Shown in pieces: positions 31,002 through 51,424 of a stretch of 64,000 bases of DNA; within the stretch, counting starts at the first letter, position 1, and each line of letters begins with the position of its first letter. The notes under the pieces were generated by a model, which was not told the origin of the DNA, ran no database searches, and saw only the letters and a program-made list of their open reading frames with translations. The position numbers and the translations under genes are program-made. The stretch is from Rhodococcus sp. ABRD24 (GTDB lineage Bacteria; Actinomycetota; Actinomycetes; Mycobacteriales; Mycobacteriaceae), in NCBI RefSeq assembly GCF_004328705.1, contig NZ_CP035319.1, positions 3,658,001 through 3,722,000 on the forward strand, written 5' to 3'.

Positions 31002-31610
31002 ATGGCGTACATCTCGGTGGAACAGCGGCGGCAGGACTTGATCCGGGCTGCGATCCGGGTCACTGCCGACGTGGGATTGACGGCCGCGACCACGCGGGCC
31101 ATCTGTGCCGAAGCCGGCGTGCAACAGAGCGTCTTCCACTACTGCTTCAGCTCGAAAGAGGAACTGTTGCGCGCGCTCACCCGGGAGGTGGTGGGGGGCA
31201 TGGTGCAGACCGCCCTGGCGAGCCTGAAGCCGGGGGCGGACGTCGAGGAATCGCTACGCGACGGGTTGACGGTGCTGTGGGAGACGGTGAACGCCCAGCC
31301 CGAAAGACACTTGGTGTTCTACGAACTCACTGTCGGCGCGCTACGGGAGCCGAACCGCAGTGACCTCGCCGAGTGGCAATACCGAGAGTACTTCGCCGCC
31401 ACCGGCACCTTCCTCGCCAGCCTCGCCGAGACAGCGGAAATCGAATGGTCCGTACCGATTCCGGTGATCAGCAGGATGGTGGCCACGGTGATCGACGGGC
31501 TGATCCTCGGCTGGCTTGCGGACCGTCGCACCGACGAGGTGGTGGCCGCAATCGAGTCGTTCACGGCGATACTCGCTCGATTGGCCGTCGTGCAGGCGGC
31601 AGTGGACTAA
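31002..31610 (+). CDS. TetR family transcriptional regulator
   Basis: 202 residues from ATG 31002 (AGGGAAGG just upstream; an in-frame extension to 30885 lacks a site). The helix-turn-helix is at about residues 20-60 (TAATTRAICAEAGVQQSVFH), followed by an all-helical ligand domain. Divergently placed next to the esterase gene, so it probably represses that gene or itself. Its stop overlaps that of the convergent AraC gene by a few bases. Confidence 0.85.
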   Translation: MAYISVEQRRQDLIRAAIRVTADVGLTAATTRAICAEAGVQQSVFHYCFSSKEELLRALTREVVGGMVQTALASLKPGADVEESLRDGLTVLWETVNAQPERHLVFYELTVGALREPNRSDLAEWQYREYFAATGTFLASLAETAEIEWSVPIPVISRMVATVIDGLILGWLADRRTDEVVAAIESFTAILARLAVVQAAVD

Positions 31611-43502: not shown

Positions 43503-43528
43503 CTGGACGCTTGATCACATTTGCTGCC
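43503..43528 (+). promoter_or_regulatory. Shared upstream element, copy 1
   Basis: CTGGACGCTTGATCAC then ATTTGCTGCC. It agrees at 19 of 24 positions with the elements at 44301-44330 and 51395-51424. A possible -10 box TAGGCT follows at 43530-43535, only seven bases before the ATG at 43543, so the transcript may be leaderless and the element may be an activator site over the -35 region. Confidence 0.6.
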
Positions 43529-43542
43529 TTAGGCTCCGCGCC

Positions 43543-44172
43543 ATGACTGCTTTCACTCGTATGTCCGGAGCCCTGACGGGGCAGGGCAAAGTTCTGGGCG
43601 GCGTGCTGCTCGCGCTCTTCCTCGCGGCTGTTGCCGTGATCGCGGTCCCGTCCGTCGCTCGCGCCGACACCCCGGCTCCCACCGTCGAGTACTCGTCCGA
43701 CGACGGTGCCACTTGGGGCGGCATCGACGAGATCGACTGGAATCTCGATGAGCTGGTGCCTGGGCGGGAGCGCGCCACCAACTTCCAGGTCCGCAACGCC
43801 TCCGGTGTGGAGGGCTGGGTCGGCTTCTCGGTGGGCCAGTACACCCTGTCTCCGGGAATGACCGCGACCGCGCGCGTCGACGTCGACGGCAAGATCGGCG
43901 AAGCGGTGGCACTGACCGAGGCCCGCACGGTGCCCCCGGGAACGCAGCTCGGCTCGATCCATCTCGAACCGAACGCAACCGCGGTGATCTCCCTAGTCGT
44001 CGGCATGCCCGCCGACGCTGACAACCAGACGCAGAACGGCCACGTGAATCCCAGGTGGGCCGTCGGCTTCACCCCCGATGCGGCGCCCGATCCCGGCTGT
44101 GGAGGTACCGGATCCACCGGTTCGCTCGGCTGCATCTTCGGTTCGCTGGGCACTGGAAGCCTTGCTTCCTGA
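43543..44172 (+). CDS. Secreted protein of the left SipW locus, unknown function
   Basis: 209 residues. A long signal peptide (to about residue 41, VARA-DTPAP) is followed by a beta-rich domain with TVEYSSDDGATWGGIDEIDW, ERATNFQVRNASGVEGWVGF and TAVISLVVGMPADADNQTQN. The alternation of V-x-N-x-[SG] segments recalls Ig-like TasA-type proteins. A glycine-serine tail with two cysteines ends the protein. It opens the cluster that continues with a TasA-like protein and a signal peptidase. No ribosome-binding site is seen, consistent with a leaderless transcript. Function inferred only from position. Confidence 0.7.
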   Translation: MTAFTRMSGALTGQGKVLGGVLLALFLAAVAVIAVPSVARADTPAPTVEYSSDDGATWGGIDEIDWNLDELVPGRERATNFQVRNASGVEGWVGFSVGQYTLSPGMTATARVDVDGKIGEAVALTEARTVPPGTQLGSIHLEPNATAVISLVVGMPADADNQTQNGHVNPRWAVGFTPDAAPDPGCGGTGSTGSLGCIFGSLGTGSLAS

Positions 44173-44300
44173 TTCGCTGATCCCCGCACGGGCGGTGACC
44201 CGAGCTCCCTCGCCGGGATGGTCGGATAGCGGCCCGCCCGCGGTTCGAGTGGGATTGCTGAGTGGCCGCAGTCATCCTGTGACGGGAATCTGGCAAACTT

Positions 44301-44330
44301 CCTTCTGGACGGTTGACCAGTTTTGCCGCG
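44301..44330 (+). promoter_or_regulatory. Shared upstream element, copy 2
   Basis: CCTTCTGGACGGTTGACCAG followed by TTTTGCCGCG. It differs at only two of 30 positions from the copy upstream of the right SipW locus. TTGACC inside it could be a -35 box. It lies 99 bases before the TasA-like gene. Confidence 0.75.
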
Positions 44331-44334
44331 GAAG

Positions 44335-44351
44335 TACCACTTCGGGTGGTA
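44335..44351 (+). promoter_or_regulatory. Leader hairpin after element copy 2
   Basis: TACCAC-TTCGG-GTGGTA, a perfect six-base-pair stem, is followed by AAAAACC. It lies just downstream of the shared element and 80 bases before the gene. It may be an operator or a leader structure. Confidence 0.4.
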
Positions 44352-44429
44352 AAAACCTCATGACGCGTAACCCGGACAGCCTCCGGCGTGGCGGCGCCCG
44401 TTCGGTTTTCACGAAAGGCTCACACTGCA

Positions 44430-45041
44430 ATGTCTCGTCACGTCGTTCCGGATGAACGCCCAGGAGTAGGTACCCGAGTGCGCACGCTCCTGACAGGTCG
44501 TCGTCCCCGCGCCATCGCGTCACTCGGGATCGTGTTGGGGCTGGGTGCCATCGGCACCCTCGCCGCCTGGAGTGACACCGCGACGGCAACATCGGGTGTG
44601 TTCTCCACCGGGTCGGTGGACCTCCAGCTCAACGGAGATCCGGGAAACCCGACGGCCTACGCGTTTGCGACGCTGACGAAGTCGAACATGCTCCCGGGTA
44701 ATTCGGTTGCCGCTACCTTGCCGGTGCAGAACGCAGGGTCGACCTCGTTCGAGTACACGATGGACGCCGCGGCAACGACGTCGCCGCTGGCACCGTTCCT
44801 CAAGGTGACGATCTCCACGGGCACGTCGAACGGCACAGTATGCAGTGGCGGTACCCCGATCGCTACCGACGTTGCGTTGGTCTCCGGCGGTTCCGCCAAC
44901 CTGATCACTGCGCCGCGGACGCTGGACAACGGCGTCAGCGAGACGCTCTGCTTCCAGGTCAAGGTCGATCCGGCGGCGACGACGGCCGTCCAGGGGCAGA
45001 CGGTCAACGCGTCGTTCAACTTCGCGGCTACGAGCGTCTGA
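44430..45041 (+). CDS. SipW-dependent-type exported protein (TasA/CalY-like)
   Basis: 203 residues from ATG 44430. After a basic N-terminus (RTLLTGRRPRAIASLG) comes the SipW-type signal IVLGLGAIGTLAAWSDTATA and the typical follow-on SGVFSTGSVDLQLNG. The mature part is a beta-rich domain (AFATLTKSNMLPGNSVAATL, PVQNAGSTSFEYTM, ETLCFQVKVDPAA) as in TasA/CalY/camelysin proteins, which form extracellular fibres in Bacillus. It should be cleaved by the SipW-like peptidase encoded seven bases downstream. A paralogue is at 50129-50677. An upstream in-frame start at 44388 is less likely. Confidence 0.85.
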   Translation: MSRHVVPDERPGVGTRVRTLLTGRRPRAIASLGIVLGLGAIGTLAAWSDTATATSGVFSTGSVDLQLNGDPGNPTAYAFATLTKSNMLPGNSVAATLPVQNAGSTSFEYTMDAAATTSPLAPFLKVTISTGTSNGTVCSGGTPIATDVALVSGGSANLITAPRTLDNGVSETLCFQVKVDPAATTAVQGQTVNASFNFAATSV

Positions 45042-45048
45042 GTTTCGC

Positions 45049-46800
45049 ATGGCCATTCACGAGAACGCGACCGAAGCCGGTCGATCCCGCGGACGCGACA
45101 TCGCCCTGAATGTCGGCGCGATCGCGGGTTTGATCTGTGTGCTCGCGGCGGTGGCGTCGTTCCTGTTCGGAATCAAGCCGCTGATCTTCCGCTCCGGTTC
45201 CATGGCGCCGGATATCCCGACCGGCGCGCTCGCTCTGTCGAAAACCACGCAGGCCGCCGACCTGCAGGTCGGTGATGTCGTGAGTGTCGAGAATCAGCAG
45301 GGAACGCGGATCACGCACCGGGTCGACGAGATCGTCTCCTCCGACGGCACCTCATCGGTACTGATCCTCAAGGGTGACGCCAATCAGGATGCCGACCTCA
45401 CGCCGTACACCGTGACCGAGGCGGATCGCGTCTTCTTCAGCGTGCCGGGCCTCGGATACGTGGTGTCGTGGCTGTCGTCTCCCGCTGCGATCTTCCTCGG
45501 CGGAGCACTGGTCGGCGGCGTCATGGTGCTCGCCTTCGGCCCCGGTTCGAAACGTAAGGACGACGACGATTCCGACTCCGGCTCGGACGCCGACGGCGAG
45601 GCGCCGGGCGCGCATGGCGTCGGCGAGCCGCCACCGGCCGCTTATGCACACGCGCACGACGTACCCACCGAATCATTCCGGACACAAGGATTTTCGATGC
45701 GACGCATTCTGTCCGCCCGCGCGGTGATCGCGCTCGGTGTCGTCGGCCTCACCGCCATCGGAGCGACGACGGTCGGCACCGCGGCAGCCTTCACCGACAA
45801 TGCCACCGCGGCCAGCACGGTCAAGTCGGCGGCCAACTTCTATCCGACTCCCTTGGTGCCATCGGCATCGTGCTCCACCAACGGCGTCTGGGGATCCCGG
45901 AGTGTCACGATCAAGTGGACTAGCGCTGGTACGTCGCCGCTCGGATCGGCATACCAGTACCGGGTGTTCGTCAAGCGCAATTCAGATGGTTACGTCGCAA
46001 AGGATTCGGGCGTGATCAGCGGGTTGAGCTACGGTAGTTTCCGTATTGGAGACACCGCAAGGGGTTATCGCGCAGAGGTGCACACCGTCAACAACGGCGT
46101 AATGTCCACCGGTTGGATGGGGCACAACATGTGGGCCTCGACCCATAACGCGGATACATATTGTGACGGCGGTCAGAACAATACCGCGAACCCCGCTTTC
46201 GAGAACGATATCTATGGCGGACTCGGTCCCGCGAGTGCGGGCGGGAACTTCCTGCGGGCGGCCCCTGGTGTTTCCCAGCCGGAGGTGGCCGGTCCCTCCG
46301 CTACGTCCACTACCTCCGCGCAATCGACTGTAGAGACAACGGAATCCACTACGGTGTCGCCGTCCTCGACGACGGTTGCGACCACTACTCCGTCGACCGT
46401 AACCACACCTCCGACAACAACGTCGACCGGCCAGCCCAGTTCGACGTCCACCGAGCCGTCCTCGACGACCGTCACGTCGATGCCAGTCGATGGAACGACC
46501 GCGGCTACGACGACGAACCCGGTCACAACGGCGTTGGACGGCGTGATGGTATCGCCGTCGGGTGCGTACACGGCTGGCCGGTCCGGATCGGATGCAGTGG
46601 TGCAGGACGCTTCCGGGAAGGCGGTATTCACGACCCCCGTACCGGGATCCACTGTCTTGCAGTGGGATGCCACGTCCGACCGACTGTGGATGGTCGATGG
46701 TGACGTTGTTCGCTATGTGGACGCGGGTAGTTGGACGCTGGTGACGGTCGATTCCGCGTCCGGGGATATTCCGGAAGCTGTTGCAGCACTGATCAAGTAG
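45049..46800 (+). CDS. SipW-like signal peptidase fused to a surface protein with its own SipW-type signal
   Basis: 583 residues in one frame. Part 1 (1-170): membrane helix, catalytic S51 in FRSGSMAPDIPTGA and H90 in RITHRVDE (Ser-His, the ER/SipW class), second helix near 145-165. A charged linker leads to M217, where MRRILSARAVIALGVVGLTA and IGATTVGTAAAFTDNATAAS form a complete SipW-type signal. The exported part has an adhesion-like domain (to about 400), a Thr/Ser stalk (about 415-500) and a terminal beta domain. AAGGA lies six bases before the codon for M217 (45697), so a separate 367-residue protein may also be made. Such genes are normally separate. Confidence 0.85.
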   Translation: MAIHENATEAGRSRGRDIALNVGAIAGLICVLAAVASFLFGIKPLIFRSGSMAPDIPTGALALSKTTQAADLQVGDVVSVENQQGTRITHRVDEIVSSDGTSSVLILKGDANQDADLTPYTVTEADRVFFSVPGLGYVVSWLSSPAAIFLGGALVGGVMVLAFGPGSKRKDDDDSDSGSDADGEAPGAHGVGEPPPAAYAHAHDVPTESFRTQGFSMRRILSARAVIALGVVGLTAIGATTVGTAAAFTDNATAASTVKSAANFYPTPLVPSASCSTNGVWGSRSVTIKWTSAGTSPLGSAYQYRVFVKRNSDGYVAKDSGVISGLSYGSFRIGDTARGYRAEVHTVNNGVMSTGWMGHNMWASTHNADTYCDGGQNNTANPAFENDIYGGLGPASAGGNFLRAAPGVSQPEVAGPSATSTTSAQSTVETTESTTVSPSSTTVATTTPSTVTTPPTTTSTGQPSSTSTEPSSTTVTSMPVDGTTAATTTNPVTTALDGVMVSPSGAYTAGRSGSDAVVQDASGKAVFTTPVPGSTVLQWDATSDRLWMVDGDVVRYVDAGSWTLVTVDSASGDIPEAVAALIK

Positions 46801-46814
46801 GAGTTTCGAGAAGA

Positions 46815-46845
46815 GGGGGGTCGGGCTTGGAATGCCCGGCCCCCC
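46815..46845 (+). terminator. Terminator of the left SipW locus
   Basis: GGGGGGTCGGGC and GCCCGGCCCCCC form a 12-base-pair stem (one T-G pair) with a seven-base loop, followed by TCCTTTCGTTTCC. It lies 15 bases after the fusion gene stop and separates it from the endoglycoceramidase gene. Confidence 0.85.
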
Positions 46846-46939
46846 CTCCTTTCGTTTCCGGGCGGGTCGGCGCATTTCGCCCGCATCGCTATTGGCGATG
46901 GGGCACGATGTGCAGACCAAGTGACCATAGGAGGAACCC

Positions 46940-48406
46940 TTGCGCCGCATCAGATTCCTGTCCGCGATCATGGCGGGCTCGCTGGTTCTCGGTGGCGGCG
47001 TGGCCGCCGCGCAGAGCAGTCTTCCCTTATCCGGAAGCCAGGGCGGCAGTGCGGCACCGCCGTCGTATCTGAAGGACGAGGACGGTCGCTCCCTGATCCT
47101 GCGCGGGTTCAACACCGCATCGAGTTCGAAGAGCGCGCCGGACGGCATGCCGAAGTTCACCGAGGCGGACCTCGAACGCGAATATGCCGCCATGGGAACG
47201 AACTTCGTGCGGTTCCTGATCTCGTGGCGTTCGGTGGAGCCCGCTCCGGGGCAGTACGACCAGGCATATCTGAACCGGGTCGAGGAACGGGTCGGCTGGT
47301 ACGCCGAGCGCGGCTACAAGGTGATGCTCGACATGCACCAGGACGTGTACTCCGGTGCGGCCATTCCCGGCGGCGATACCGGCAACGGAGCAGGGCCGAT
47401 CGGCAACGGTGCGCCGGCGTGGGCAACATACACCGATGGTCTCTCGGTCGAGCCCCAGGACCGGTGGGAGCTGTACTACATTCAGCCGGGCGTGATGCGG
47501 GCGTTCGACAACTTCTGGAACACCACCGGCAAGCACCCCGAACTCGCCGAGCACTACGCGAACGCCTGGCGGGCGGTTGCCGAGCGTTTCGCCGACAACG
47601 ACGCCGTCGTAGCCTACGACCTGATGAACGAGCCCTGGGGAGGCTCCATGATCGGGTCGCCGTTCGAGGCCGGTCCCCTCGCCGCGCTGTATCAGCGGAC
47701 CACCAACACCATTCGGCAGGTCGACCAGGACAGCTGGGTTTGCGTGGCACCGCAGGCAATCGGCGTCAACCAGGGTCTGCCCAGCGGACTCACCAAGATC
47801 GACGATCCCCGCGCCGGTGAGCAGCGCATCGCCTACTGCCCGCACCTGTATCCGCTCCCGATGGACCTCGGTAGTGCATATGAGGGCCCGGCGCGGACGC
47901 TCACCGACGTGACCATCGATGCCTGGCGTGCCGATGTGGAGCGGGTGTCCGGCGTGCTCGGTGGCGTACCAGTCATCATCGGAGAGTTCGGATTCGACAC
48001 CACCCTCCCAGGCGTCGTCGACTACATCGGGCGCGTCTACGACGAGGCCCGCGAGATGGGCGCAGGTGTCGCGTATTGGTCAAGTGATCCCGGGCCGTGG
48101 GGCCCGTACCTCGAGGACGGTACCTCGACTGCGCTCGTGGGCACCGTGAACAAGCCGTATCCGCGCGCGGTGGCGGGTACCCCAGTCGAATGGTCGGCGT
48201 CGGATACCAATCTGCAGTTGACCTTCCGCCCCGACCCGGCGGTTACCGCCCCCACCGAGATCTACCTGCCGCAGCAGGGCTTCCCCGGAGCGGTGAACGT
48301 CGAGGGCGCCGACATCGTCTCGTGGGATCGAGACAGCAGACTTCTCACCGTACGGACGGTGGGTGACGCAGCCAGCGCCACCGTGAAGGTCACTCCGGCC
48401 AACTGA
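46940..48406 (+). CDS. Endoglycoceramidase-type glycoside hydrolase (GH5)
   Basis: 488 residues from TTG 46940, chosen because AGGAGG is five bases upstream. A signal peptide of about 24 residues (VLGGGVAAA-QSS) precedes a GH5 (beta/alpha)8 barrel: acid/base E231 in AYDLMNEPWGG and nucleophile E349 in VPVIIGEFGFD, close to E233 and E351 of Rhodococcus EGC II as I recall them. A C-terminal beta-sandwich (about 400-488) follows. Such enzymes cut the link between the sugar chain and ceramide in glycosphingolipids; some relatives act on glyceroglycolipids. It lies between the two SipW loci and has its own terminators on both sides. Confidence 0.9.
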   Translation: MRRIRFLSAIMAGSLVLGGGVAAAQSSLPLSGSQGGSAAPPSYLKDEDGRSLILRGFNTASSSKSAPDGMPKFTEADLEREYAAMGTNFVRFLISWRSVEPAPGQYDQAYLNRVEERVGWYAERGYKVMLDMHQDVYSGAAIPGGDTGNGAGPIGNGAPAWATYTDGLSVEPQDRWELYYIQPGVMRAFDNFWNTTGKHPELAEHYANAWRAVAERFADNDAVVAYDLMNEPWGGSMIGSPFEAGPLAALYQRTTNTIRQVDQDSWVCVAPQAIGVNQGLPSGLTKIDDPRAGEQRIAYCPHLYPLPMDLGSAYEGPARTLTDVTIDAWRADVERVSGVLGGVPVIIGEFGFDTTLPGVVDYIGRVYDEAREMGAGVAYWSSDPGPWGPYLEDGTSTALVGTVNKPYPRAVAGTPVEWSASDTNLQLTFRPDPAVTAPTEIYLPQQGFPGAVNVEGADIVSWDRDSRLLTVRTVGDAASATVKVTPAN

Positions 48407-48441
48407 ATCGGCGTTCCGGCAGGGGCTCGGGGCCGTCCGAT

Positions 48442-48474
48442 GATCGGCCCGCATCCACTGGATGCGGGCCGATC
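48442..48474 (+). terminator. Terminator of the endoglycoceramidase gene
   Basis: GATCGGCCCGCATCCA and its exact complement TGGATGCGGGCCGATC are separated by one base; the working hairpin has a stem of about 13 base pairs. It lies 36 bases after the stop codon. Confidence 0.85.
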
Positions 48475-48722
48475 GCGTTAACTCGTCGGCGTTCACGTGC
48501 CGCTCATGTCACCGAGGCGGATCGTGAGCGAATCGGCGGCACTCATCGCGGTGTCGTGGTTCGGGGGGGGAGGGGAGCCGCCCCGTGCCGGTAGATCGCG
48601 AAGTGGCGGGAGTCTGCCCCGGAATAGCCTGGACGAATCCGAACCGCTTCGATGCTGTTCGCCCGGCTTGACTCTCGGCTGAAGCCCGACGGGTGCGGAG
48701 CTACGCCCACTCATACCGCAGC

Positions 48723-48807
48723 GCTCCCCGGACTCGAGCTGAGACCGGGGAGCACATGCGATGTAAGGCAGGGCCACCGATCGGGAGGGGGACCGTCGGT
48801 GGCCCTG
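48723..48807. terminator. Two tandem hairpins after the right SipW locus
   Basis: Hairpin one: GCTCCCCGG and CCGGGGAGC (48723-48731, 48745-48753). Hairpin two: CAGGGCCACCGA and TCGGTGGCCCTG (48769-48780, 48796-48807). The second lies 11 bases after the stop of the leftward lipoprotein gene and is its likely terminator; the first may back it up. Confidence 0.75.
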
Positions 48808-48817
48808 AGTTCAGCGG

Positions 48818-49393
48818 TTAGGAGATGACCTGCTCGAGGTGTATGCCGATGTTCTGAAAGTCCGCTGTATCCGATTGTCCGACAGCGCCTGCGGTCTGTG
48901 GATCGAATGTGAACTTCGCTGATACTTCGACGGTCGCACCGTCCTGGGCCGTGGTTACTATGTTGCCCACCGGCAGGGGTGCACCGTTGACCGTGGCCGT
49001 CACCTCGGGTGCAAGATTGCCCTTGAGTTGCCCACCGCCGGTGAAGGTTACGTCGTCGGCGGTGAGGCGCGCTTCGAGATCGGTGCCCCGCACCGTGATC
49101 TTGAAGGTGCCACGGTAGGTGAGTACATCCCCCGGGACGATCCGCATGGTCGAGATGTTGATCGGGCCATTCTGATCGGTCCACGTCGGTTGATCGAGGG
49201 GTGTAATAGCCAGCGAGCCGGAACCGTTTCCGCCTCCGCCGATCGTGGTGGGCGGTGCCGTCGTCGTGGTCCCACCGCCGGAGCTTCCGCCTGAACTGCC
49301 CGCGCTTCCGGATCCGATCGGATCGCAGGCGGTCAGCAGGAACGCTGAACACAGCGCAGCCGTTGCGACGATGCCCTTGGTTCGCGTCTTCAT
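48818..49393 (-). CDS. Lipoprotein paralogue of the SipW-type exported proteins
   Basis: 191 residues. Instead of a SipW-type signal it has a classical lipoprotein signal (MKTRTKGIVATAALCSAFLL, lipobox LTAC at about C23), a Gly/Ser/Thr spacer, and then a domain clearly related to the product of the gene at 50682: QPTWTDQNGPINISTMRIVP and GDVLTYRGTFKITV against PSWSDQNGPIDIATFLAVPG and DVLTYKTQAVIG. It would be anchored to the membrane, unlike its exported relatives, perhaps as an assembly base or cap. It follows the signal peptidase gene by about 100 bases. Confidence 0.82.
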   Translation of the reverse strand: MKTRTKGIVATAALCSAFLLTACDPIGSGSAGSSGGSSGGGTTTTAPPTTIGGGGNGSGSLAITPLDQPTWTDQNGPINISTMRIVPGDVLTYRGTFKITVRGTDLEARLTADDVTFTGGGQLKGNLAPEVTATVNGAPLPVGNIVTTAQDGATVEVSAKFTFDPQTAGAVGQSDTADFQNIGIHLEQVIS

Positions 49394-49490
49394 CGGCTAC
49401 TCATTCCCCTCGGGTCGGTGGTCCGACCGATCTCGTGCCAAGTACGTCCTCCGAATCAGGTGGACGGGTTCCGGCTTCATGCGGTGGTAT

Positions 49491-50132
49491 TCACTTTGCG
49501 CTCGGTGTCGAATTGTCGGCGTCGAGCACTTGGCTTGCGACGGTGTCGGTGGATCCGTCGTTCGGCACCGACTGATGTCGGCGCTTGCGGGCGTTGTCGC
49601 GGCCCGAGCTGATGAACATCGACACCGCATAGATCAGCAGGCCGCCCACGACCACTGCAAGGAGGATCGAGCGCTGCTTACCGCTGACGAAGTTGTTGAC
49701 GTATCCGACATAGGGGACGGAATACCAGACCTTGCCGCGGATCTGTTCGGGTACAACGGTTCTCTCGTCGGGCGACGAGTTGGCATCGCCCTGGGTGGTG
49801 AATCGCAGTTCGCCCTGCGATGTTCGCTGCGCAGCTGTGATCCGATGCGTCACGACATCCGGATTGTCGGATTCCCATTGAAAAGTGATCGGGTCGCCGA
49901 CCTTCAGAGTCTCAGGGTCTTGAGTTCGCACGACGATCAACGCGCCGGGCGAATAGGTCGGCTCCATCGAACTCGTCAGCACGGTATAGGGCGTAGCTCC
50001 GGCGAGACGAGGAACCACGATGGTGAGCAAAAGGATCCCGACCATCGCGATCAGCAGCACCCACGACGCAACCGACTTGACCCACCACCAAGCGGTGGTG
50101 GGTTCATTGTCAAGCTTGTGGTGACGGTTCAT
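49491..50132 (-). CDS. SipW-like signal peptidase I
   Basis: 213 residues. Membrane helix at about 20-42 (VASWVLLIAMVGILLLTIVV), catalytic serine S55 in VLTSSMEPTYSPGAL, histidine H96 in DVVTHRITA replacing the lysine of ordinary bacterial type I peptidases, RFTTQGDANSSPDE, and a second helix at about 160-178. This Ser-His class processes SipW-type signals. Its start overlaps the stop of the upstream TasA-like gene (ATGA), showing a dedicated pair. A basic tail of about 35 residues follows. Paralogous to the peptidase half of the 45049 protein. Confidence 0.88.
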   Translation of the reverse strand: MNRHHKLDNEPTTAWWWVKSVASWVLLIAMVGILLLTIVVPRLAGATPYTVLTSSMEPTYSPGALIVVRTQDPETLKVGDPITFQWESDNPDVVTHRITAAQRTSQGELRFTTQGDANSSPDERTVVPEQIRGKVWYSVPYVGYVNNFVSGKQRSILLAVVVGGLLIYAVSMFISSGRDNARKRRHQSVPNDGSTDTVASQVLDADNSTPSAK

Positions 50133-50677
50133 CCGACCTCTGCGGCGAACGTGAACGTCGCGGTGGTGGTGGCGTTCTGGGCTGCCTCATCACTGATGCC
50201 AGCGCGCAGGCACAACACCTCGGAGGCACCGGGAGCCAGCGTGCGCCACAGCGGTATCTGGGCGCCGACCAGTGCGCCGCTGTACAAAGGTGTTGCATCG
50301 GAGGGATTCCCGGTTGCGGGGCAGGCGCCCTCGGACGGAACGGTCGACAATGTGAGTGCCAGCGGCACCGCCGGATTGGACTGGACGCCGTTCTGCAGGC
50401 GGTACTTCATGGCAACATTGCCCGAGTTCTGCACAGTGACCGGCGCCTGTGCGAAATCGCCAGGCATCATCCCGGACTTGGCCAAAGCAGTGAAAGCATA
50501 GTCGCTCTGAGCCGTGCCACCGCTGCCGACAGCGATGTCGAGGGTGCCGGCGGTGATGGTGCCGGCGTCGAGGTTCTCGGTGCCACTCCACAGGGCGCCG
50601 GTCTGCTGGGTTGAGAAGAAGATCAGACCCAGGACCGGCACCGCTGCGAGTGCCCACCAACGGTGGTTCTTGGACAA
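50129..50677 (-). CDS. SipW-dependent-type exported protein (TasA/CalY-like)
   Basis: 182 residues. The signal region RWWALAAVPVLGLIFFSTQQ is followed by TGALWSGTENLDAGTITAGT, the SipW-type cleavage zone. The mature domain shares AFTALAKSGMMPGDFAQAPV and TVQNSGNVAMKYRL with the left-locus protein (AFATLTKSNMLPGNSVAATL, PVQNAGSTSFEYTM). Probable fibre or matrix subunit. It lies four bases after the RER_14450-type gene and overlaps the peptidase gene. Confidence 0.85.
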   Translation of the reverse strand: MSKNHRWWALAAVPVLGLIFFSTQQTGALWSGTENLDAGTITAGTLDIAVGSGGTAQSDYAFTALAKSGMMPGDFAQAPVTVQNSGNVAMKYRLQNGVQSNPAVPLALTLSTVPSEGACPATGNPSDATPLYSGALVGAQIPLWRTLAPGASEVLCLRAGISDEAAQNATTTATFTFAAEVG

Positions 50678-50681
50678 GGCG

Positions 50682-51185
50682 CTACTGCTGCTGCAACTCG
50701 AGGGTCAGGTTGGCGAGCGAGGCAGTCTTGGTCTGACTCGTGTTGTCCGAGCTCTGGGCGAAGGTGAACGCGACCTCGACGTCGACGAGGTCGGTGTCGT
50801 TGTCGTCGGTGATCGTGGTCACCGAAGTGCTGCCAATCTTCATACTCACAGCGGGAGTTCCGAGCGCGGTCTTGAGATCGCCGGTGATGCTGGTGGGATC
50901 GACGGTGATGGCGGCTTCGAGGTTGTCGCCGGTGGCGCCAATGACGGCCTGCGTCTTGTAGGTGAGGACATCGCCGGGCACGGCCAGGAACGTGGCGATG
51001 TCGATCGGGCCGTTCTGGTCGGACCAGCTCGGGGTGCCCTGGGTGGAGAGCGTCAGCGTTCCGGCGGTGATGGTGCCACCGTTCAGCGACTCGGAGTCGC
51101 TCCACAGCGCGAAGGAACCCGCGCCACCGGCGAGGAGCAGGGCGGCGGCCCCGGCGGCAATTGCGCCCTTGGTCTTCTTGTTCAT
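50682..51185 (-). CDS. Alternate signal-mediated exported protein (RER_14450-like family)
   Basis: 167 residues from ATG 51185; a longer frame to 51314 adds only non-signal sequence. Signal: MNKKTKGAIAAGAAALLLAG then GAGSFALWSDSESLNGGTIT, the W-S-D motif of SipW-type signals. Mature domain: SWSDQNGPIDIATFLAVPGD and VLTYKTQAVIGATGDNLEAA. It matches the family described from Rhodococcus erythropolis as 'alternate signal-mediated exported protein, RER_14450 family'. First gene of the right locus; the shared element lies 209 bases upstream. Confidence 0.85.
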   Translation of the reverse strand: MNKKTKGAIAAGAAALLLAGGAGSFALWSDSESLNGGTITAGTLTLSTQGTPSWSDQNGPIDIATFLAVPGDVLTYKTQAVIGATGDNLEAAITVDPTSITGDLKTALGTPAVSMKIGSTSVTTITDDNDTDLVDVEVAFTFAQSSDNTSQTKTASLANLTLELQQQ

Positions 51186-51394
51186 CTCGGTGATCTCGAT
51201 TCTTCTGGCCCCACGGATGGGGTCGGTGCGAGGGGGTTGGTGCGTCGGATCGGGAAGCACGTGACCGGTCAGAGCGTTGTTTCGAAGAGCCACTCGGTCG
51301 GCGCTGTCTGTCACCGGGGTAGTGCTGGGTACAACGGATGCGGCAGGCCTTCGGGCCGTGCCGGAGTAATTTGTAGCACTACCGTGACCTTCGT

Positions 51395-51424
51395 CGTGGC
51401 AAAACTGGTCAATCGTCCAGAAGG
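51395..51424 (-). promoter_or_regulatory. Shared upstream element, copy 3
   Basis: Read on the minus strand: CCTTCTGGACGATTGACCAG then TTTTGCCACG. It agrees with copy 2 at 28 of 30 positions and, more loosely, with copy 1. It lies 209 bases upstream of the first gene of the right SipW locus. Confidence 0.75.

What the first reader, a model, noticed from the sequence alone, without database searches (positions are those of the whole stretch)
43503..51424. Two convergent SipW/TasA-like loci share an upstream DNA element
Three copies of an element with core CTGGACGnTTGAyCA, two bases, then TTTGCyrC lie before 43543, before 44430 and, inverted, before 51185. Copies 2 and 3 agree at 28 of 30 bases, although the genes they precede are only distantly related. 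Each locus has a Ser-His signal peptidase and TasA-like exported proteins, and the two loci converge on an endoglycoceramidase gene. This looks like one co-regulated surface-fibre or matrix system in two modules, with an unknown regulator. The element and the loci are seen directly; joint control and fibre formation are inferred.
Basis: partly seen in the sequence, partly recalled or inferred. Interest (0 to 1): 0.88.

Follow-up and report, generated by a model that had tools for sequence, protein, structure and literature searches.

The report
Shared operator for matrix and sphingolipid genes
The repeated DNA element in front of these two surface-protein loci is probably the docking site of a TetR-type gene switch that also sits before genes for breaking down animal-type membrane lipids, which hints that this bacterium makes a surface coat when it meets such lipids.

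Summary
In detail: three exact copies in the window (0 in 100 shuffles) and no other exact copy in the 5.1 Mb genome. The genus is Prescottella (Rhodococcus equi group).

The loosened core YTGGACNNTTGAYCANNTT has 24 exact hits in 14 genus genomes; its reversed control has none. All 24 precede genes of the SipW/TasA loci (16), a neutral ceramidase (6) or a membrane GH5 gene related to endoglycoceramidase (2). The element is therefore not SipW-specific.

A matrix from SipW-locus sites only finds the site before ceramidase in 14 of 14 Prescottella and in tested members of three other genera. The core is an imperfect dyad. A TetR-family gene carries the perfect dyad YTGGACNNNNGTCCAR before its own start (14 of 14 orthologues in three genera, 0-1 mismatch); in two genomes it lies beside ceramidase with that dyad between. 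Copies 2 and 3 differ from it by one base.

Best reading: operators of this TetR, linking matrix export to sphingolipid breakdown. Binding, direction of control and inducer are inferred. Where A2-SipA is inverted it carries its own element. The endoglycoceramidase between the loci is a local paralogue. Fibre formation is only weakly supported.

The parts
43503..43527 (+). Element copy 1 (core dyad CTGGACGCTTGATCAC), before gene A1; dyad centre about 31 nt before the predicted start of transcription
   Evidence: 3 mismatches to the TetR's own operator
43530..43535 (+). Predicted -10 TAGGCT, kept in relatives, 7 nt before the ATG of A1 (leaderless-type promoter)
   Evidence: consensus reading, not mapped
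43543..44172 (+). A1: 209-aa exported beta-rich protein, no family match
44305..44329 (+). Element copy 2, before A2; 1 mismatch to the TetR's own operator
44347..44355 (+). Predicted extended -10 (TGGTAAAAA); dyad centre to hexamer 37 nt, as in copy 3
   Evidence: not mapped
44430..45041 (+). A2: SipW-dependent-type signal peptide protein
   Evidence: TIGR04088, 29.7 against cut-off 19
45049..46800 (+). SipA: signal peptidase (Ser-His) followed by a long second part rich in Thr/Ser (by eye)
46940..48406 (+). Endoglycoceramidase-like GH5 protein; local paralogue, 87% identical copy at G000:C1:1978439
48818..49393 (-). B4: TIGR04089 exported protein
49491..50132 (-). SipB: SipW-type signal peptidase (Ser-His)
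50129..50677 (-). B2: exported protein, weak TIGR04089 match (below cut-off)
50682..51185 (-). B1: TIGR04089 exported protein, TasA-like
51370..51378 (-). Predicted extended -10 (TGCTACAAA) of the B1 promoter; dyad centre to hexamer 37 nt
   Evidence: not mapped
51396..51420 (-). Element copy 3, before B1; 1 mismatch to the TetR's own operator

Best explanation
The element is an operator: an imperfect 16-bp dyad (YTGGAC-N4-GWYCAR, with a T-rich 3' side) bound by a dimeric TetR-family regulator, in this genome most likely the protein at G000:C1:4280442-4281059. The same regulator would control its own gene with a divergent FAD oxidoreductase and a PLP-enzyme gene, the neutral ceramidase, some endoglycoceramidase-type GH5 genes and the SipW/TasA export operons. 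The likely signal is a sphingolipid breakdown product or a related lipid, so the matrix proteins would be made together with sphingolipid-degrading enzymes. Shown: the sites, their conservation, the pairing of TetR and palindrome, and the equal 37-nt spacing to a predicted extended -10 at copies 2 and 3. Inferred: binding, one regulator for both the symmetric and asymmetric sites, the inducer, and the sign of control (repression likely at A1, where the site overlaps the core promoter, and at ceramidase; an activating or other role possible at B1/A2).
For: Core pattern: 24 of 24 exact hits in 14 genomes lie before B1 (10), A2 (4), A1 (2), ceramidase (6) or a membrane GH5 gene (2); reversed-pattern control 0 in 14 genomes (assigned). 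A matrix trained only on SipW-locus sites: ceramidase upstream regions reach 14.6 to 26.3 in 14 of 14 Prescottella; of 895 null windows (Prescottella DNA) one reaches 15.3, the rest stay at or below 10.2. Outside the genus 24 of the 59 ceramidase-positive genomes drawn were tested: g21 5 of 5, g23 4 of 4, g22 5 of 5 have the site or its palindromic form (at most 1 of 895 null windows as good); g7, g9, g10, g14, g15 0 of 10. SipW operons in g21 and R. erythropolis-type genomes carry it too. The TetR: divergent from ceramidase with CTGGACGATCGTCCAG or CTGGACGTTCGTCCAG between in G059 and G075. Its orthologues in Prescottella (7 genomes), g21 (3) and g23 (4) have a dyad with 0-1 mismatch before the start in 14 of 14 and another behind the gene in 14 of 14; in 380,753 comparison bases that dyad occurs once outside the SipW-locus elements. 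The recognition helix (assignment recalled) AGVSLGVVHYCF is identical in 19 of 19 proteins from g1, g21, g22, g23 and differs in the 4 others aligned. In a wider draw, overlapping the first, 20 of 28 loci have the dyad at 0-1 mismatch. Copies 2 and 3 are one base from that operator.
Against: No binding or expression data. The SipW and most Prescottella ceramidase sites are asymmetric (A where the palindrome has T), so a second TetR or a heteromer could read them. Three of five g22 TetR genes have no dyad nearby, and 7 of 28 loci in the wider draw have none upstream, four of them with the same or nearly the same helix. G019 has a TetR relative at 44% but no site at ceramidase. In G005 the element is separated from B1 and faces away. 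Further SipW loci in G004 and G009 (3 of 3) lack the element. SipW loci of other genera lack it at the threshold used (22 of 22 loci outside g21/g23), as do 7 of 12 g23 loci. Of the fetched loci of other families none has it at SipW. Ten of the 32 one-mismatch core hits lie at other genes. A dyad-only pattern is expected 0.6 times per window by chance at up to 1 mismatch, and perfect dyads also occur at unrelated genes.
Confidence: 0.62

Rival explanations
1. A different dimeric regulator (another TetR paralogue or another family) reads the asymmetric TTGGAC-N2-TTGAYCA sites, while the TetR found here reads only the perfect palindromes. The ceramidase-SipW link would still stand, but the regulator would be unknown.
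For: The A at position 12 is kept in all three window copies and in most Prescottella ceramidase sites, whereas the TetR's own sites are palindromic. g21 genomes carry TetR paralogues, one with its own palindrome (L320).
Against: Ceramidase promoters in g22 show both forms. Among the places examined no other regulator gene recurs beside the sites; the two seen (G012 MerR-type, G009 TetR) are single-genome hits.
Confidence: 0.22
2. The element is only a conserved core promoter (TTGACC as -35) and no regulator site.
For: TTGACC resembles the -35 consensus.
Against: No sigma-70-type promoter is found in the region. The conserved -10-like hexamer lies 31 nt after TTGACC at copies 2/3 and 13 nt after TTGATC at copy 1. 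A 16-bp dyad is kept well outside what a -35 box needs, and exact core hits occur only at the few gene groups named.
Confidence: 0.06
3. Copies 2 and 3 are alike only because a promoter piece was duplicated recently during the inversion, without functional constraint.
For: Of the genomes compared, A2 has its own copy only in the four where A2-SipA is inverted.
Against: The bases behind the two copies agree only at chance level (12 of 50), the element is kept in all four inverted genomes, and ceramidase, at an unlinked place, has the same site.
Confidence: 0.04
4. The element is an EspR-type nucleoid-protein site (TTTGC[TC][GA]).
For: All three window copies contain TTTGCYR, the EspR consensus given in PMC3315491 (passages read).
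Against: That part is changed in several orthologous copies (TTTCGCC, TTTCTCC, TTTCACC, TTTTCC) and at ceramidase, while the dyad is kept.
Confidence: 0.04

Closest known systems
SphR regulon of Pseudomonas aeruginosa (sphingosine-induced ceramidase and sphBCD; PMC5150637 outline with abstract, PMC11893366 passages)
   Same: One regulator controls a neutral ceramidase and an operon with an oxidoreductase and a PLP-dependent enzyme
   Different: SphR is an AraC-family activator; here the candidate is TetR-family, and SipW/TasA surface proteins are in the proposed regulon. The FAD protein here is ALO-type (PF04030), SphC is described as FMN-linked
TetR-family autoregulators with palindromic operators
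   Same: Operator at its own promoter and at a divergent or neighbouring gene
   Different: Unlinked surface-protein operons carry one-sided variants of the operator
SipW-TasA matrix system of Bacillus
   Same: SipW-type Ser-His signal peptidase with SipW-dependent exported proteins (NCBIfam TIGR04088/TIGR04089)
   Different: Bacillus SipW equivalog cut-off not reached; two peptidases; proposed control by a lipid-type TetR regulon instead of SinR (recalled)

Membership tests
TetR operator/regulon | TetR_N domain in the candidate regulator | tested here: met
   PF00440 41.7 bits against cut-off 24
TetR operator/regulon | Palindromic operator at its own promoter | tested here: met
   14 of 14 orthologues in three genera at 0-1 mismatch; 2 of 5 in g22; 20 of 28 in the wider draw
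TetR operator/regulon | Same dyad at the SipW/TasA promoters | tested here: met
   Copies 2 and 3 one mismatch, copy 1 three mismatches
TetR operator/regulon | Protein binds the element and controls the genes | not testable with these tools
   needs binding and expression experiments
SipW-type signal peptidase | Ser-His dyad, archaeal-type signal peptidase I family TIGR02228 | tested here: met
   SipB 103.4 and SipA 57.7 bits against 51.85; Ser55/His96 invariant
Bacillus SipW equivalog NF046067 | Curated cut-off 190 bits | tested here: not met
   94.2 and 60.6 bits
SipW-dependent exported protein TIGR04089 | Curated cut-off 60 bits | tested here: met
   B1 156.1, B4 82.7; B2 only 19.4, not met for B2
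TasA fibre protein | TasA fold | tested here: inconclusive
TasA fibre protein | Fibre formation | not testable with these tools
   needs microscopy
EspR site | TTTGC[TC][GA] kept across copies | tested here: not met

The most novel reading that the evidence does not exclude
In Prescottella and related rhodococci a TetR-family lipid sensor couples a SipW/TasA-type surface matrix to sphingolipid breakdown, so that contact with eukaryotic membranes or their debris switches on glycolipid- and ceramide-cutting enzymes and a protein coat together. The asymmetric operators set a second tier of response.
Probability: 0.35. Interest if true: 0.85.

Novelty: new variant of a known kind. Interest (0 to 1): 0.74.

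Why it matters
A relative of SipB (E up to 0.001, some weak) is found in 129 of 301 genomes drawn from the family, yet my paper searches (titles and abstract starts seen) listed no study of such a system in Rhodococcus. A defined operator, a candidate regulator and an expected lipid signal make its function directly testable. A matrix under sphingolipid control would be a new link between bacterial surface layers and eukaryotic lipids, in a genus that contains an animal pathogen (P. equi) and a source of endoglycoceramidases used in the laboratory (both recalled).

Tried and rejected
EspR reading: rejected because TTTGCYR is not conserved outside some copies. Sigma-70 promoter reading: no consensus hit. 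'Element only before SipW genes': refuted by ceramidase and GH5 sites. 'Endoglycoceramidase is the point of the convergence': rejected, since it was found at this place only in G000 and has an 87% copy elsewhere behind a phospholipase C-type gene with no site upstream at up to 1 mismatch. Known family of A1: none in NCBIfam or Pfam; its model matches only general beta sandwiches, best Foldseek E 9.5e-4 for an unrelated enzyme with TM 0.26. Sequence search of solved structures with B1: nothing better than E 0.3. Papers on the regulon: (listings) led to EspR and the Pseudomonas SphR work; no listed title was on a TetR of sphingolipid genes in Rhodococcus. Family-wide 21-mer search: 53 of 301 genomes, with control hits too, so too loose outside the genus to use alone. 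A first set of SipW loci from g21 was cut too short to show the promoters and was completed. Palindromes before a 4-hydroxyphenylpyruvate dioxygenase-like gene (L141, L161) and a site at an lpd-like locus (L154-L157, L163), products named by eye, were seen but not settled. The two 3-mismatch hits outside the SipW locus (L004, L019) were not followed. Second ceramidase copies in five genomes (G034, G053, G075, G091, G104) were not tested for the site.
Full report
What is there. The three copies of the element are exact matches at 43503-43527 (+), 44305-44329 (+) and 51396-51420 (-), with 0 chance matches in 100 shuffles of the window. In the whole 5,098,030-base genome the 25-mer has only these three and one 3-mismatch hit. 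Copies 2 and 3 agree at 28 of 30 bases, while the 50 bases that follow agree at only 12.

Where it lies. The genus of the window is Prescottella (ex Rhodococcus equi group). With up to 3 mismatches the 25-mer is found in 10 of 14 genus genomes at 20 places, 18 of them at the SipW locus; the reversed-pattern control hits one genome.

Anatomy across relatives. Gene order was compared in 15 fetched loci of 12 relatives that hold a SipW-type gene: 12 at the main locus and three further SipW loci. In G001, G004, G005, G008, G009, G010 and G012 the A2-SipA pair follows SipB on the same strand, and A2 has no element of its own (7 of 7). In G000, G003, G006 and G007 the pair is inverted and A2 has its own element (4 of 4). 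G002 is a mixed case without a site at A2; G013 has the order B1-A2-SipA-B1'-B2-SipB with a weak site before the first B1. B1 has the site upstream in 12 of 13 SipW-positive genomes (weaker in G009 and G013); in G005 the element lies 533 nt away and faces away from B1. A1 has it in 9 of 9 close homologues, degenerate in G001 and G007, and not in the distant homologue of G013. No A1 and no copy 1 element were found in G010 and G012. The three further SipW loci (two in G009, one in G004) lack the element.

Promoter geometry. At copies 2 and 3 the dyad centre lies 37 nt before a predicted extended -10 (TGGTAAAAA, TGCTACAAA), although the sequence between differs. At copy 1 the distance to TAGGCT is 19 nt, and TAGGCT lies 7 nt before the ATG (one search shows similar spacing in relatives and in R. 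erythropolis). These -10 boxes are consensus readings, not mapped starts.

Beyond SipW. The loosened core YTGGACNNTTGAYCANNTT at up to 1 mismatch gives 56 places in 14 of 14 genomes; the reversed control gives none. All 24 exact places lie before B1 (10), A2 (4), A1 (2), neutral ceramidase (6) or a 798-aa membrane GH5 protein related to endoglycoceramidase (2; L112, L124). Of the 32 one-mismatch places, 5 are A1, 7 ceramidase, 5 a conserved operon for two secreted proteins (L151, L153, L158-L160), 5 an lpd-like locus and 10 other places (assigned). A ceramidase of the set matches PF04734 and PF17048.

Independent test. A matrix built only from 11 SipW-locus site variants was run on 210-nt pieces at the ceramidase start. 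All 14 Prescottella reach 14.6 to 26.3; of 895 null windows, all from Prescottella DNA, one reaches 15.3 and the others stay at or below 10.2. Of 59 ceramidase-positive genomes outside the genus in the draw, the 24 with a fetched locus were tested. The site or its palindromic form is beaten by at most one null window in g21 (5 of 5), g23 (4 of 4) and g22 (5 of 5), and absent in g7, g9, g10, g14 and g15 (0 of 10).

SipW outside the genus. 129 of 301 family genomes have a SipB relative at E up to 0.001. 40 loci were fetched, eight of them extended. In g21 6 of 6 carry the site before the first gene (G074 only weakly); in g23 5 of 12 do (three R. erythropolis-type genomes at 22.8, two weaker). 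None of 22 loci in other genera does at a score of 14; some promoters there may lie outside the fetched pieces. The named loci of other families (L178-L193) have none at SipW.

The regulator candidate. In G059 and G075 (g22) a TetR-family gene is divergent from ceramidase with a perfect dyad, CTGGACGATCGTCCAG or CTGGACGTTCGTCCAG, between them. All 22 genomes examined have a relative; in Prescottella, g21 and g23 the best one is 42-49% identical. In those three genera 14 of 14 have YTGGACNNNNGTCCAR (0-1 mismatch) about 64-89 nt before the start and a second dyad behind the gene. In 380,753 bases of comparison sequence that dyad occurs once outside the SipW-locus elements. The recognition helix (assignment recalled) AGVSLGVVHYCF is identical in 19 of 19 proteins from g1, g21, g22 and g23 and differs in G019, G069, G050 and in the window's own TetR paralogue. 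In a wider draw of 101 genomes, which overlaps the first set, 20 of the 28 loci looked at have the dyad at 0-1 mismatch, 1 at 2 mismatches and 7 none. Against this, 3 of 5 g22 genes lack it. In G000 the gene is at C1:4280442-4281059, next to a divergent ALO-type FAD oxidoreductase and an alanine-racemase-type PLP protein, each with a dyad in its upstream gap. Perfect dyads number 72 in the genus against 21 for the control; several of those read are at unrelated genes.

Putting it together. Copies 2 and 3 differ from the TetR's own operator at one base, copy 1 at three. Endoglycoceramidase relatives at 61-66% identity carry a dyad-like hit near the start in 7 of 7 unbroken loci (scores 12.9-17.6), not in the broken G003 copy; the window-type endoglycoceramidase has none (0 of 5). 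Among the more distant GH5 relatives fetched, L112 scores 35.0, L113 17.3, L119 14.9, L122 12.4, L120 11.2 and L121 none. The simplest reading is one TetR regulon for ceramidase, part of the endoglycoceramidases, an oxidoreductase/PLP operon and the SipW/TasA operons. It resembles in content the sphingosine regulon of P. aeruginosa, where the AraC-type SphR controls ceramidase (PMC5150637, outline with abstract read) and sphBCD, a cytochrome, an oxidoreductase and a PLP-dependent aldolase (PMC11893366, passages read). That parallel is an analogy; the substrate of the operon here is unknown.

Verdict. The weak points are the asymmetry of the SipW sites, the missing dyads in some TetR orthologues, and the lack of any expression evidence.

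Noticed in passing
46940-48406; L296:4132-7912: The endoglycoceramidase of the window has an 87% identical paralogue at G000:C1:1978439, directly behind a phospholipase C-type gene (PF04185).
   Followed up: partly
31011-31577: A TetR paralogue (about 35% identical to the candidate regulator) lies in the window about 12 kb from the SipW loci; G004, G005, G007 and G009 have a similar gene some 25-32 kb from theirs. No dyad was found at the promoter of the window's copy.
   Followed up: partly
L151, L153, L158, L159, L160: CTGGACACTTGACCAACTG, followed by a further conserved stretch, stands before an operon of two secreted proteins (about 176 and 340 aa, nearly no family match) in five species.
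   Followed up: partly
L154-L157, L163: A weaker copy of the element recurs upstream of a dihydrolipoamide dehydrogenase-like gene in five species (product named by eye).
   Followed up: no
L141, L161: Perfect TGGAC-N4-GTCCA dyads precede a 4-hydroxyphenylpyruvate dioxygenase-like gene in two species (product named by eye).
   Followed up: no
L346 and eight more places: The dyad CTGGACGAGTGTCCAA is kept in nine genomes; in the one read it lies at the start of an MFS transporter gene.
   Followed up: partly
L084, L085, L087: Further SipW loci in G009 (two) and G004 (one), divergent in sequence and without the element.
   Followed up: partly
L117:517-831: A small winged-helix regulator (PF13601) lies about 650 nt from an endoglycoceramidase gene in G002.
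   Followed up: no
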